This document shows, piece after piece, positions 45,603 through 56,605 of a stretch of DNA of 64,000 nt. The position numbers were made by a program, and so were the translations under genes. Source of the stretch: Clostridium ljungdahlii DSM 13528 (GTDB taxonomy: Bacteria > Bacillota > Clostridia > Clostridiales > Clostridiaceae); NCBI RefSeq assembly GCF_000143685.1, contig NC_014328.1, forward strand, positions 2,480,001 through 2,544,000. Direction: 5' to 3'. The notes below the pieces were generated by a model. It did not search any database, had not been told where the DNA came from, and saw only the letters and a list, made by a program, of their open reading frames with translations. Position 1 is the first letter of the stretch. Each line of letters begins with the position of its first letter.

Positions 45603-46736
45603 TCACTTTATTATATCTATATTATCAACTAAATCTGGAATATTTTTTCTATAAATTCTTCCTGAAAAAGCTTCATGTGGAAGTGATATAAATTTAGTAC
45701 CAGGCTGAATAATTCTTTCATAAATAGGGTCTGCAATTACAACTGCAGCATTTTGCAGATGCATCATTATACTATCTTCATCTTCTGCCAAGATATCTTC
45801 TGACAATAACAAATCAACTTCTGTTTCCAAAGGACATAAGACTTTAACTTTCATATTTTTTTCAAGTGCAAGTGCTGCAGCTAATGATTCCGAATAAATG
45901 CTTTCTCCAATAATAACTGTGTCACCACCACGCACAACTCGTTTATCATATGCAATTTGGGATTTTCCTGTACTAATTGCCCTATCCAGTGATTTCATTA
46001 CTACATCTGCAAACTGATCTCCCATTGGAACGCCTACAACATATGGTGTTCCAAACTTCTTCTGTAATTCTTTTGCTGCTAAAAGTCCAGTAGAAGAAAC
46101 AACTAAGTTTACTTCTGCAGCACCAGCTTGTTTCATTTGCTCTAGTGTACTTCCCATTGCCCATACAGATAAAACCTGAAAACCTGCTTCAGTTAATCGT
46201 CTTCTAATGCTATCCACACTGCTATTTACAGAATAATCTAAAGGAGTAGCACCAAGTACATTTACACTTTTTGTTATCTTAGATATACTCTCCACTGTAA
46301 ATCGTTTTACTATTTCAGCAAGAGCTTGTCCTGCTCCACATATGTAAGAATGCATTCCATTTGTTTCGATAGCAAACGTAGGAATTTTAGTTTCATTTTC
46401 AATCACTTCTGCAATAGCTGGAAAATCTGTGCCTATCATCATTGGAATAGGTGTACCTGCAATAGCTATAAACTTAGGATATAACTCATTTGCAGCTGCC
46501 ACAATATCATGTATTAATTTCTCATCATCACCCATGATAGCTTCCATTTCAGAAAGTCCTGTAATATAGATCATGCTGTCCATATCATACCAACGTGGTT
46601 CGTCATGAGTAGTATATGTTGAATTGCACCCTGATGCATCATGCATTACAGTCATCCCACCTAATTCATATAGTGCGGAACAAACACCTGACACATCTGC
46701 CGTATATGTTGAAATAAATGCTGATGCCTGTTTCAT
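45603..46736 (-). CDS. Nitrogenase-like component 1, K-type subunit, set 1
   Basis: 377 residues of the oxidoreductase/nitrogenase component 1 superfamily. The N-terminal VMHDASGCNSTYTTHDEPRW has Cys37 in the position of a cluster ligand. FIAIAGTPIPMMIGTDFPAI and FAIETNGMHSYICGAGQAL are the usual core strands. It is much shorter than NifK (about 520) and has only this one clear ligand cysteine. I set the start at the ATG at 46736, whose ATGA overlaps the stop of the D-type gene. Paralogous to the K-type subunit at 53481-54542, with the same Cys37 and EPRW motif. Substrate unknown. Confidence 0.82.
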   Translation of the reverse strand: MKQASAFISTYTADVSGVCSALYELGGMTVMHDASGCNSTYTTHDEPRWYDMDSMIYITGLSEMEAIMGDDEKLIHDIVAAANELYPKFIAIAGTPIPMMIGTDFPAIAEVIENETKIPTFAIETNGMHSYICGAGQALAEIVKRFTVESISKITKSVNVLGATPLDYSVNSSVDSIRRRLTEAGFQVLSVWAMGSTLEQMKQAGAAEVNLVVSSTGLLAAKELQKKFGTPYVVGVPMGDQFADVVMKSLDRAISTGKSQIAYDKRVVRGGDTVIIGESIYSESLAAALALEKNMKVKVLCPLETEVDLLLSEDILAEDEDSIMMHLQNAAVVIADPIYERIIQPGTKFISLPHEAFSGRIYRKNIPDLVDNIDIIK

Positions 46737-48061
46737 AAGCAGCAACCACACCTCCATCCTTTGATTTGTATAAGCTTTCGTACATCTTTAGGACATGTAA
46801 AAGCTTCTTTCATAAGTCCAGCAAGTCTCGCAATTCCATCAAAACCGTACATGCCGCCGCCTTCTACTATATTTACAAAGTATTCACTTCCTGTAAAATA
46901 AGCAGCCTTTTGTCCTATTGCAAGGCTCTTTTCACTACATTTTCTATCCAGAACACCCATCTTTGCATGTACTGTAGCATACACTTTAATATCAGGTTTG
47001 TTTTTTACAAGCCAGTCAAAATCTGTCTTGTCCCATTTTGTAAATGAATCTGCATATAGCCTGTCCACATTAAATCCATTTTCTACAAGCAATCGTGCAA
47101 GTCCACAAGGTCTTGGAACAGATGTATAATCTATGGAGATCTTTGAACCACCAATGACTTTTTTTGCTTCTTTCAAAGCATTTAAAGCTGCTGACTTTTC
47201 ATCTGCATATTCTTTTTTTGGTAATCCTAAATACTCTCTCAATGTATTCAAATTTTTTGTTATTTCATCAAATCCATAACATAAAGGCAAATGCAAATGC
47301 TTTTGTCCTAATTTGTCTTGCAAATAGTCTCCACCTGGTATTGCAACAGGCAGATAGGATATGTTTGCACAGCTTTCAGCCATATTAAGATATTCATCAT
47401 AGGTTTTGCAAAAAGTAATATCTTTCAGTTCATATCCATTTTCACGAATGATCCGTATAAGTTCACTGCTTTCATCCGTAGGAATATTGTTACCAATGAT
47501 ATTAATGCTTTTTTTGTTAATTTCCATTGGTTGAAGGATGCTGTATAATTGACGTTTCATTTTCTCATCCGGAGTCAGGCCACTTTTTCTCATAATTGGA
47601 TCCATATAACAATCCATGAAAGTCACATCCGGATATCTTTTTCGTAATTCTGTGTAAACTAGCTCCAAATCACATCCCATAAAATAATGTATGCAGGCAG
47701 TAAATATTAGAACTGCTGGAGGTTTTTGTGGAAGTTTATTGAGTATATCTGATACACCCTCAATAATAAGTTCCTCCATATCACCTTCAAGTACATTATT
47801 TTCCTGCACAGCTATAGTTGAGAATCTGTCCAACGTACCCATTTCTGCTGCCGTAAGAACAACTCCTCTTAAACAGTTTGCTGCACACACATATATCTGA
47901 TGTGACTTTGGAATAAGCATTCCAACATGAACTATATTCCATACTCCCCTAGCAGGAGCGTTATATTGCAGGCCAGATACAAATGGCTCAGGAAATGCAG
48001 CATCTTTTATTAAAGTACAGGTACCCGCCTCATCAACGTGTCCAGATACATTTATAAGCAT
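46733..48061 (-). CDS. Nitrogenase-like component 1, D-type subunit, set 1
   Basis: 442 residues. Candidate cluster cysteines are C59 and C63 in IYVCAANCLRG, and the Cys of IFTACIHYFMGCDLE, corresponding to the three cysteines that D-type subunits use. VEGGGMYGFDGIARLAGLM near the C-terminus is family-like. The protein ends in WRCGCCL, an unusual Cys-rich tail. Start at the ATG at 48061 with AAAGGAG. It overlaps the H-type gene by 10 bases. It lacks clear counterparts of the FeMo-cofactor Cys275 and His442, so a dinitrogen role is not supported. Confidence 0.82.
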   Translation of the reverse strand: MLINVSGHVDEAGTCTLIKDAAFPEPFVSGLQYNAPARGVWNIVHVGMLIPKSHQIYVCAANCLRGVVLTAAEMGTLDRFSTIAVQENNVLEGDMEELIIEGVSDILNKLPQKPPAVLIFTACIHYFMGCDLELVYTELRKRYPDVTFMDCYMDPIMRKSGLTPDEKMKRQLYSILQPMEINKKSINIIGNNIPTDESSELIRIIRENGYELKDITFCKTYDEYLNMAESCANISYLPVAIPGGDYLQDKLGQKHLHLPLCYGFDEITKNLNTLREYLGLPKKEYADEKSAALNALKEAKKVIGGSKISIDYTSVPRPCGLARLLVENGFNVDRLYADSFTKWDKTDFDWLVKNKPDIKVYATVHAKMGVLDRKCSEKSLAIGQKAAYFTGSEYFVNIVEGGGMYGFDGIARLAGLMKEAFTCPKDVRKLIQIKGWRCGCCL

Positions 48062-55847: not shown

Positions 55848-56605
55848 TTCATTTCCTCACTTTTAATCAATAATGTGGCTAAATTGAAAAAGCACTTACT
55901 TATTGGAAGATTAGGGTCTCCTTCAATAACTGTTTTCCCCATCTCCTCAAAATGATTGATATTATTGTCTCTTGGGATATCACCTACAATAGGAAGATGT
56001 TCCTTGCTGGCAAAATCTTTTACTTTTTTTTCTTCATTTTCAATATTTCTATGATTGAATACGATACCAAACACCTTTGCATAACCCCTATCTGCAAAAT
56101 TTTTAACTGCACTATTTATGTTATTTGCTGCATAGAGGGCCATTTTTTCACCAGAAGTAACAATAAGTACTTTTTCAGCATATCCTTCACGAATAGGTGC
56201 TGCAAATCCACCGCAAACTACATCTCCTAAAACATCATAAAGTACAACATCTGGCTTGTACTCTTCAAAAAGATTTAAATCCTCTAATAAATTAAATGTA
56301 GTAATAATTCCTCTGCCTGCACAACCAAGTCCTGGTGTAGGGCCGCCAGTCTCTATACACAGAACGCCGCCAAAACCTACTTTTGAAATATCTTCAATTT
56401 TTTCTGGATCTGCATCAAATTCTCTCATATAATTCATTACAGGCATTAATGTTTTTCCTCCAAGCAAATTGCTATTGGAATCTGCTTTAGGATCACATCC
56501 TATCTGAATAACTTTTTTTCCGAGCTTGGCAAAGGCTGCTGACAAATTACTGGTAATTGTAGATTTCCCAATACCGCCTTTTCCGTATACAGCTATTTTC
56601 AGCAT
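55844..56605 (-). CDS. Nitrogenase-like iron protein (NifH/CfbC/BchL family), set 2
   Basis: 253 residues. P-loop VYGKGGIGKSTI, IGCDPKADSN, Cys95 in GLGCAGRG and Cys131 in DVLGDVVCGGF, so both cluster ligands are intact. It is the first gene of a ten-gene operon, preceded by an AGGGGG site and by a terminator-like hairpin 40 bases upstream. The two H-type proteins are clearly paralogous, and each heads its own D-K pair. Confidence 0.92.
   Translation of the reverse strand: MLKIAVYGKGGIGKSTITSNLSAAFAKLGKKVIQIGCDPKADSNSNLLGGKTLMPVMNYMREFDADPEKIEDISKVGFGGVLCIETGGPTPGLGCAGRGIITTFNLLEDLNLFEEYKPDVVLYDVLGDVVCGGFAAPIREGYAEKVLIVTSGEKMALYAANNINSAVKNFADRGYAKVFGIVFNHRNIENEEKKVKDFASKEHLPIVGDIPRDNNINHFEEMGKTVIEGDPNLPISKCFFNLATLLIKSEEMK

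What the first reader, a model, noticed from the sequence alone, without database searches (positions are those of the whole stretch)
45603..56605. Ten-gene operon with two complete nitrogenase-like H-D-K sets around hypF-hypC-hypD-hypE
Order on the minus strand is H2-D2-K2-hypF-hypC-hypD-hypE-H1-D1-K1, with most junctions overlapping (ATGA at H2/D2, K2/hypF, D1/K1; 38 bases at hypF/hypC). Both H proteins keep the P-loop and both cluster cysteines, and the Hyp proteins keep HypE's terminal Cys, HypD's CGTHTH and HypC's Cys2. Known nitrogenase-like enzymes reduce N2, protochlorophyllide, a nickel tetrapyrrole (Cfb) or methylthio-alkanes. None that I know of is built with Hyp proteins. Two hypotheses: the Hyp set delivers an Fe(CN)2CO group to one D/K pair acting as enzyme while the other acts as scaffold (like NifEN to NifDK), or the whole operon makes an unknown hydrogenase cofactor. 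No hydrogenase gene is in view.
Basis: partly seen in the sequence, partly recalled or inferred. Interest (0 to 1): 0.95.

Follow-up and report, generated by a model that had tools for sequence, protein, structure and literature searches.

The report
HydG-free hydrogenase cofactor assembly operon
A ten-gene operon that joins two nitrogenase-like enzyme sets to HypF-C-D-E proteins is found in bacteria that carry [FeFe]-hydrogenase assembly genes but nearly always lack HydG, and it likely replaces HydG in making the iron-CO-cyanide core of that hydrogen enzyme.

Summary
The operon is real, intact and conserved: of 58 relatives with at least 7 kb downstream of D1, 57 keep D1-K1-hypF-hypC-hypD-hypE exactly and one has hydE-hydF inserted. 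The Hyp proteins are not mainly for [NiFe]-hydrogenase: 41 of 50 operon genomes searched show no large subunit, and of 70 HypD-bearing Clostridia all 11 without one carry strong D1. The neighbourhood points to [FeFe]-hydrogenase: hydE, hydF or TM1266 lies in 53 of 80 loci, hydG in none, though not in the seven Clostridium loci nearest the window. Over 393 Clostridia all 13 strong-D1 genomes have HydF and none has HydG over cut-off; 233 other HydF genomes have it. In 50 operon genomes HydG is over cut-off in 2. Set 2 without Hyp or set 1 occurs beside hydE, hydF and/or TM1266 in six more HydG-less genomes. A missing HydG in C. ljungdahlii was published without a settled explanation (PMC9431212), and Blautia species with this gene pattern show hydrogenase activity (PMC12773636). 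Most likely the operon replaces HydG; this is inferred from genomes, and each set's chemistry is untested.

The parts
55844..56605 (-).
   Evidence: PF00142 294.9 bits; below every equivalog cut-off; P-loop Lys and cluster Cys95/Cys131 invariant in 81 sequences
54543..55847 (-). D1: NifD/E-like subunit, set 1
   Evidence: PF00148 100 bits; marker of the operon; model pLDDT 84, nitrogenase component 1 fold
53481..54542 (-). K1: short NifK/N-like subunit, set 1
   Evidence: PF00148 70 bits; Cys37 and Asp14 invariant in 71 sequences
51085..53493 (-). HypF carbamoyltransferase
   Evidence: TIGR00143 772 bits, cut-off 466; Zn-finger pattern in 68 of 68
50916..51122 (-). HypC chaperone, Cys2 kept
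   Evidence: TIGR00074 71.7 bits, cut-off 48; MCVG in 64 of 64
49858..50916 (-). HypD
   Evidence: TIGR00075 391.9 bits, cut-off 192.8; CGTHTH and GCPVC in 65 of 65; only HypD of this genome
48861..49865 (-). HypE, C-terminal Cys kept
   Evidence: TIGR02124 417.5 bits, cut-off 251.6; PRIC end in 63 of 63
48052..48822 (-).
   Evidence: PF00142 300 bits; not found in 8 relatives that keep D2 and are not cut there, so one H may serve both pairs
46733..48079 (-). D2: NifD/E-like subunit, set 2
   Evidence: PF00148 78.8 bits; 52-56% identical to D2 of Hyp-less variant B beside hydE/hydF/TM1266
45603..46757 (-). K2: NifK/N-like subunit, set 2
   Evidence: PF00148 113 bits; Cys44, Asp21, His39, His51, His361 invariant in 57 sequences

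Best explanation
The operon is predicted to be a HydG-replacing pathway for [FeFe]-hydrogenases: HypF-HypE likely make cyanide from carbamoyl phosphate, HypC-HypD likely mount CN and CO on iron, and the two nitrogenase-like H-D-K sets would reduce and remodel that iron unit before HydE and HydF would turn it into the H-cluster. Shown: gene content, conserved order, linkage to hydE/hydF/TM1266 in most loci, absence of HydG in nearly all carriers searched, absence of a [NiFe] large subunit in most, intact Hyp catalytic residues, and nitrogenase-like sets with aligned ligands for one cluster but none for FeMoco. Inferred from homology: the HypFE cyanide chemistry and HypCD Fe(CN)2CO assembly. Inferred from linkage: set 1 acts on the Hyp product (the two are together in 58 of 58 loci with enough sequence), and set 2 acts nearer to HydE/HydF (it occurs with hydE/hydF/TM1266 without Hyp in variant B). 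Untested: what is reduced. My choice is that set 1, driven by ATP through H1, helps set the ligands at one CN and two CO per iron (a second CO, possibly from CO2), and set 2 passes the low-valent unit to HydE/HydF. In C. ljungdahlii-type genomes the same Hyps probably also mature the single [NiFe]-hydrogenase.
For: 1) Synteny: D1-K1-hypF-C-D-E exact in 57 of 58 loci with at least 7 kb downstream; in the other, L090, hydE-hydF lie between D1 and K1, as also in L075. 2) [NiFe] large subunit (PF00374) not found in 41 of 50 operon genomes; of 70 HypD genomes other than this one, 11 lack it and all 11 have strong D1, and 58 of the 59 with it lack strong D1 (p=6e-12). The exception, G396, has two HypDs, one in the operon and one in a hypC-D-E group on the hydrogenase contig. 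3) HydG exclusion: strong-D1 genomes 13 of 13 HydF+ and 0 of 13 HydG+; D1-less HydF+ genomes 233 HydG+, 14 HydG- (p=7e-15). Within-genus swaps in g1, g55 and, for variant B, g179. 4) Second panel: HydG over cut-off in 2 of 50; all 8 sub-cut-off hits inspected are ThiH over its own cut-off. 5) hydE, hydF or TM1266 within about 10 kb in 53 of 80 loci, hydG in 0 (families confirmed on examples). 6) Variant B: set 2 beside hydE, hydF and/or TM1266, without HypD or strong D1 in the genome, in six HydG-less genomes, with an importer whose ATPase reads on into a TM1266 domain in L180 and L185. 7) Hyp catalytic residues conserved. 8) Published: C. ljungdahlii has HydE, HydF, four predicted [FeFe] catalytic subunits and no HydG that meets the known motifs; Blautia luti and B. 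schinkii show H2:methyl viologen activity, and genomes of these species here (G027, G028) have the operon, no HydG over cut-off, no PF00374. C. carboxidivorans G003, without HydG over cut-off, encodes an [FeFe] catalytic subunit.
Against: No biochemistry: every functional step is inferred. Two operon genomes (G005 C. drakei, G007 C. thailandense) also have HydG. Seven HydF+ HydG- Clostridia have neither strong D1 nor, in six looked at around HydF, nitrogenase-like genes (G190, G290, G293, G338, G366, G411; G377 not looked at), so HydG can be lost, missed or replaced otherwise. The seven Clostridium loci nearest the window (L013-L019) have no hydE, hydF or TM1266 within 10 kb, and this genome's HydF lies far away at C1:4573627. 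Variant B lacks Hyp, so Hyp is not always needed and its CN source is unexplained. Fe(CN)2CO has two CN per iron, the H-cluster one, so a ligand change must be assumed. PMC9431212 reports a motif-based HydG in C. autoethanogenum, a close relative, and an atypical radical SAM candidate in the other acetogens including C. ljungdahlii, which I did not identify. HydE and [FeFe] catalytic subunits were not surveyed genome-wide, and the D1 profile at E<=1e-20 does not find every D2, so set 2 versus HydG was not fully tested. One search used E<=1e-100, so HydG fragments would be missed.
Confidence: 0.8

Rival explanations
1. A separate new enzyme: the Hyp set gives an Fe(CN)2CO group to one nitrogenase-like pair, which reduces an unknown substrate, and the link with [FeFe]-hydrogenase genes is indirect (shared anaerobic redox regulation).
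For: D/K proteins meet no known family cut-off; two full sets resemble an enzyme plus scaffold; Hyp residues intact; no hydE/hydF/TM1266 in 27 of 80 loci, some of them short, among them L013-L019.
Against: Does not explain HydG exclusion in 13 of 13 and 48 of 50, hydE-hydF inside the operon in L075 and L090, or set 2 with hydE/hydF/TM1266 in variant B.
Confidence: 0.1
2. The Hyp proteins only mature a [NiFe]-hydrogenase and the nitrogenase-like genes are neighbours of other function.
For: This genome has one [NiFe] large subunit and only this HypD; six Clostridium relatives have matches over most of the profile too.
Against: 41 of 50 operon genomes show no large subunit; 11 of 12 strong-D1 genomes of the HypD panel show none; HypA is below cut-off or absent in 35 of 51; G396 has a second hypC-D-E on its hydrogenase contig.
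Confidence: 0.03
3. HydG is replaced by another radical SAM protein (a ThiH-like or atypical HydG), and the operon does something else in H2 metabolism.
For: PMC9431212 suggests atypical HydG candidates; 31 of 50 operon genomes have only sub-cut-off TIGR03955 hits.
Against: All 8 such hits inspected (L197-L204) are ThiH over its own cut-off, and 17 of 50 operon genomes have no hit at E<=1e-40. The atypical candidate of PMC9431212 was not tested.
Confidence: 0.05

Closest known systems
HydG/HydE/HydF H-cluster maturation
   Same: HydF is retained (13 of 13); hydE, hydF and the TM1266 regulator are linked in many loci.
   Different: HydG is absent in 13 of 13 and 48 of 50 carriers searched; a Hyp plus nitrogenase-like module appears to stand in its place.
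HypCDEF of [NiFe]-hydrogenase maturation
   Same: All four proteins above curated cut-offs with catalytic residues.
   Different: No [NiFe] large subunit in 41 of 50 carriers; HypA over cut-off in only 16 of 51; in one operon with nitrogenase-like genes.
NifEN/NifDK with NifH, and DPOR (BchLNB)
   Same: ATP-driven reductase plus D/K pair; component 1 fold for D1; three Cys plus one invariant Asp at P-cluster ligand positions, which recalls DPOR's Asp ligand.
   Different: No FeMoco ligands, short K subunits, separate clades from Nif, no cut-off met.
Nitrogenase-like clade of Coprococcus catus and Dorea longicatena in Dos Santos et al. 2012 (PMC3464626)
   Same: Two linked NifHEN-like copies, an arrangement similar to two Cys in D and one in K, and hydrogenase maturation proteins nearby in C. 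catus: very probably this operon.
   Different: That paper offers only a possible role in active-site metallocluster assembly; HydG absence, the hydE/hydF link and variant B are not in the passages I read.

Membership tests
Mo/V/Fe nitrogenase (NifDK, VnfDK, AnfDK) | FeMoco ligands Cys275 and His442 in D | tested here: not met
   No counterpart in D1 and D2 in alignment with the NifD of the same genome; residue numbers recalled from A. vinelandii
Mo/V/Fe nitrogenase (NifDK, VnfDK, AnfDK) | Three P-cluster Cys in each of D and K | tested here: not met
   Two in D1/D2 (NifD 88 and 154 positions), one in K1/K2 (NifK 95 position); numbers recalled
Mo/V/Fe nitrogenase (NifDK, VnfDK, AnfDK) | NCBIfam equivalog cut-offs | tested here: not met
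   H1/H2 310/326 bits vs 394 for nifH; best D/K score 69 (K2, nifE) vs 505
DPOR/COR (Bch) | NCBIfam cut-offs | tested here: not met
   K2 64.6 bits vs 490 for BchB
DPOR/COR (Bch) | [4Fe-4S] held by three Cys and one Asp | tested here: inconclusive
   Three Cys plus invariant Asp14 (K1)/Asp21 (K2) at the NifK Cys70 position; no structure of the D-K complex
CfbCD (F430) | TIGR03282/NF033200 cut-offs | tested here: not met
   D1, K1, K2 21-34 bits vs 268, D2 no hit; H 293-325 vs 402
Methylthio-alkane reductase (Mar) | Groups with Mar-type D/K | tested here: inconclusive
   Separate from one Mar-like set of this genome (identity of that set not verified; long branches)
HypCDEF maturases | Curated cut-offs and catalytic residues | tested here: met
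[NiFe]-hydrogenase maturation operon | [NiFe] hydrogenase to mature in the genome | tested here: not met
   Not found in 41 of 50 carriers; present in this genome
HydEFG H-cluster maturation | HydF present | tested here: met
   13 of 13 strong-D1 genomes
HydEFG H-cluster maturation | HydE present genome-wide | not tested
   Seen within 10 kb in 12 of 80 loci and in C. ljungdahlii per PMC9431212
HydEFG H-cluster maturation | HydG present | tested here: not met
   0 of 13, 2 of 50
H-cluster ligand synthesis | CN/CO made and delivered to HydE/HydF | not testable with these tools
   Needs isotope labelling and infrared spectroscopy

The most novel reading that the evidence does not exclude
Nature has a second, HydG-free route to the CO and CN ligands of the [FeFe] H-cluster: Hyp proteins make cyanide from carbamoyl phosphate, and two nitrogenase-like enzymes working in series reduce CO2 to CO on that iron and shape it into the Fe(CO)2CN unit for HydE. 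It would be the first nitrogenase homologue that builds an organometallic hydrogenase cofactor.
Probability: 0.45. Interest if true: 0.97.

Novelty: categorically new. Interest (0 to 1): 0.94.

Why it matters
HydG is regarded as the enzyme that makes the CO and CN ligands of the H-cluster. Genomes examined here of well-known acetogens and gut bacteria (C. ljungdahlii, Blautia luti and schinkii, Roseburia faecis, Anaerobutyricum hallii, Coprococcus comes) have no HydG over cut-off, and the gap was published for acetogens without a settled explanation. This finding gives a concrete, testable replacement, joins three metallocofactor worlds (nitrogenase, [NiFe], [FeFe]) in one operon, suggests a role for an orphan nitrogenase-like clade, and could offer new maturation tools for H2 biotechnology.

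Tried and rejected
Sole [NiFe]-hydrogenase maturation: rejected. Sub-cut-off HydG hits as real HydG: rejected for the 8 inspected, all ThiH over its cut-off; the hits of the other 23 such genomes were not inspected one by one. Two neighbours that I read as ThiG gave no NCBIfam match at E<=1e-60, so ThiG is by eye only. Weaker D1-profile hits as the same system: six (L157, L159-L163) are set 2 of variant B; six (G113, G167, G175, G181, G281, G408) look like a third H-D-K family, not tied to HydG status (the D of G281 is not in the tree). G205 as a HydG-less genome: rejected, HydG is cut by a contig end. A phmmer search of D2 against solved structures found no nitrogenase; K2 and the D1 profile did. 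Neighbour clusters c2, c3, c7, c8 look like antisense ORFs and were ignored. Literature for a prior proposal: (no preprints held, many subscription journals missing); only PMC3464626 (linkage) and PMC9431212 (missing HydG) came near.
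Full report
Observation. The window lies at C1:2480001-2544000 of a 4,630,065-base single-contig genome. I name the upstream H-D-K set 1 and the downstream one set 2. All four Hyp proteins exceed their NCBIfam cut-offs; none of the six nitrogenase-like proteins reaches a cut-off of Nif, Bch or Cfb models.

Conservation. A profile of D1 (A1, 26 sequences) found 492 encoding places in one-genome-per-species data; the best 80 were kept. 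Of 58 loci with at least 7 kb downstream of D1, 57 read D1-K1-hypF-hypC-hypD-hypE without change and one has hydE-hydF between D1 and K1. Of 52 loci with D1, hypE, D2 and K2, set 2 is downstream in 40 and upstream in 12. By record title, carriers include Clostridium, Lachnospiraceae, Oscillospiraceae, Megasphaera, Coriobacteriaceae and Atopobiaceae. Eight loci have D2 but only one H gene (two more are cut by the contig start), so one reductase may serve both pairs, as NifH does for NifEN and NifDK (the Nif comparison is recalled).

Not a [NiFe] system. PF00374 was sought in 50 of the 80 operon genomes (the tool takes 50): 9 match, 41 do not. Of the 9, six are Clostridium with matches over most of the profile and three show only a short N-terminal match. 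HypA is over its cut-off in 16 of 51 genomes; this genome is among the 51 but not the 16. Over 393 evenly drawn Clostridia (completeness 90 or more asked for), HypD is over cut-off in 72, one of them a fragment with a stop. In the 70 other than this genome and the fragment, 59 have PF00374, many of them by a short N-terminal match only, and 11 do not; strong D1 (586 bits or more) occurs in 12, namely all 11 plus G396 (p=6e-12). G396 carries a full operon with its own hypFCDE and a second hypC-D-E on its hydrogenase contig. This genome has one [NiFe] large subunit at C1:3168436-3169659 and only this HypD, so here the Hyps probably do both jobs.

The [FeFe] link. Neighbour clustering gave three recurrent further families, identified on examples as TM1266 [FeFe]-hydrogenase regulator, HydF and HydE. 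By tblastn within the 80 loci TM1266 is present in 40, HydF in 19, HydE in 12, at least one of them in 53 (union counted from the lists), HydG in none. In L075 and L090 hydE-hydF lie inside the operon between D1 and K1. Against this, the seven Clostridium loci nearest the window (L013-L019) show none of the three, and this genome's HydF is far away at C1:4573627-4574805.

HydG exclusion. In the same 393 Clostridia: D1 strong in 13 (next best 214.7 bits), all HypD+; HydG over cut-off in 239, none of the 13; HydF in 260, all of the 13. Among HydF+ genomes: D1+/HydG+ 0, D1+/HydG- 13, D1-/HydG+ 233, D1-/HydG- 14 (p=7e-15). The p values ignore relatedness, but strong-D1 genomes fall in five families, and the swap occurs within genera: g1 (G000, G230, G325 with D1; G340 with HydG) and g55 (six with D1; G124, G257, G333, G406 with HydG). 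In the 50 genomes reached through loci HydG is over cut-off in 2 (G005 C. drakei, G007 C. thailandense); 31 have only sub-cut-off hits and 17 none at E<=1e-40. The 8 sub-cut-off hits inspected are ThiH over its own cut-off. One search used E<=1e-100, so HydG fragments would be missed.

Variant B. Of the 14 D1-less HydF+ HydG- genomes, one (G205) has HydG cut by a contig end. Six (G111, G176, G245, G368, G375, G437) carry set 2 (D2 52-56% identical) without set 1 in the fetched stretches; they have no HypD and no strong D1 in the genome. Around it: TM1266, HydE and HydF in L180 and L181; HydE in L182 (9.4-kb contig); TM1266 in L183-L185, with HydF elsewhere where fetched (G437 L193, G368 L194). 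An ABC importer of the iron-siderophore/B12 type stands in L180, L181, L182 and L185 (ORFs; family search only for L181 and the L180 ATPase, below equivalog cut-offs). In L180 and L185 the ATPase frame reads on into a TM1266 domain. Within genus g179, G375 has set 2 and G330 has HydG. Seven genomes remain unexplained (G190, G290, G293, G338, G366, G377, G411). Stretches around HydF of six of these held no nitrogenase-like genes; G377 was not looked at.

Sequence features. D1 Cys71/D2 Cys69 and D1 Cys131/D2 Cys129 align with NifD P-cluster ligands 88 and 154; NifD 62 and the FeMoco ligands have no counterpart. K1 Cys37/K2 Cys44 align with NifK 95, NifK 153 is Pro, and NifK 70 is an invariant Asp (residue numbers recalled). 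Three Cys plus one Asp recalls the DPOR cluster. Hyp catalytic residues: HypE PRIC 63/63, HypD CGTHTH and GCPVC 65/65, HypC MCVG 64/64, HypF Zn pattern 68/68; the V-HH-AH pattern of HypF matched in 54 of 68 and G-VQGVGFRP in 67 of 68. In a tree of samples (68 rows) set 1 D and K are each one clade (100/100); set 2 of variants A and B together form one clade (D 100/100, K 94/88), apart from Nif and a Mar-like set (long branches for the references). AlphaFold of D1 (pLDDT 84) matches nitrogenase component 1 chains with TM about 0.6-0.7 (NifDK, NifEN, Mar, DPOR) at 12-18% identity.

Literature. PMC3464626 (passages, section 11): two linked NifHEN-like copies in Coprococcus catus and Dorea; in C. 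[quoted passage not shown] PMC9431212 (passages; abstract): C. ljungdahlii and four other acetogens have HydE and HydF, and HypCDEF, but no HydG that meets the known motifs; the authors give no straightforward explanation and weigh an atypical radical SAM candidate and free diatomics. They report HydG in C. autoethanogenum, C. drakei and C. scatologenes, and cite an [FeFe]-hydrogenase purified from C. autoethanogenum. PMC12773636 (passages): B. luti makes H2 and its extracts show 14-644 mU/mg H2:methyl viologen activity; B. schinkii about 23,000 mU/mg; B. luti has [FeFe] genes hydA and hydM. The genomes here (L048/G027, L049/G028) may be of other strains of these species. PMC12578642 (passages) lists Roseburia among carriers of group B [FeFe] genes; the word HydG does not occur in its main text as held. 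PMC6306167 and PMC10418091 were seen as passages; other papers only in search listings.

Mechanism and limits. Hyp genes travel with set 1, set 2 with hydE/hydF/TM1266; hence set 1 likely acts on the Hyp product and set 2 nearer the HydE/HydF step. Two Fe(CN)2CO units carry four CN and two CO, the H-cluster two CN and three CO, so ligand remodelling and a CO source are needed; a nitrogenase-like reductase is a plausible source (nitrogenase reduction of CO2 to CO is recalled, not from a call). Variant B shows that Hyp is dispensable somewhere, perhaps because a ready-made or precursor complex is imported; this is speculation. I hold the HydG replacement at 0.8 and the detailed ligand chemistry at about 0.45. 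I file it as categorically new because I know of no nitrogenase homologue, and found in the searches named above no report of one, that acts in H-cluster synthesis; the gene linkage itself is in print since 2012.

Noticed in passing
G000:C1:2586080-2591190 (L206:10080-15189, outside the window): A further nitrogenase-like set with a radical SAM protein that looks NifB-like, H, D (503 aa) and K in the same genome; looks Mar-type but was not identified.
   Followed up: partly
L152, L154, L155, L156, L158 (G175, G408, G113, G181, G167); L153 (G281): A third nitrogenase-like H-D-K family in Clostridia (D about 24-34% identical to D1/D2), present with or without HydG.
   Followed up: partly
window 41994-45454: Two PEP_hydrolase-like proteins, one fused to an AraC-type DNA-binding domain, around a UPF0261 protein, just downstream of the operon.
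   Followed up: partly
G000:C1:3167277-3167477 (L093): Sub-threshold HypA-like match in a short open frame (88 aa) near the [NiFe] hydrogenase; HypA may be degenerate in this genome.
   Followed up: no
P0018, P0060, P0063: D1 homologues of 560-589 aa, longer than the usual 434, possibly fusions.
   Followed up: no
L202:2664-4022 (C. carboxidivorans, G003): [FeFe]-hydrogenase catalytic subunit with H-cluster motifs beside a thiH gene in a genome without HydG over cut-off.
   Followed up: yes
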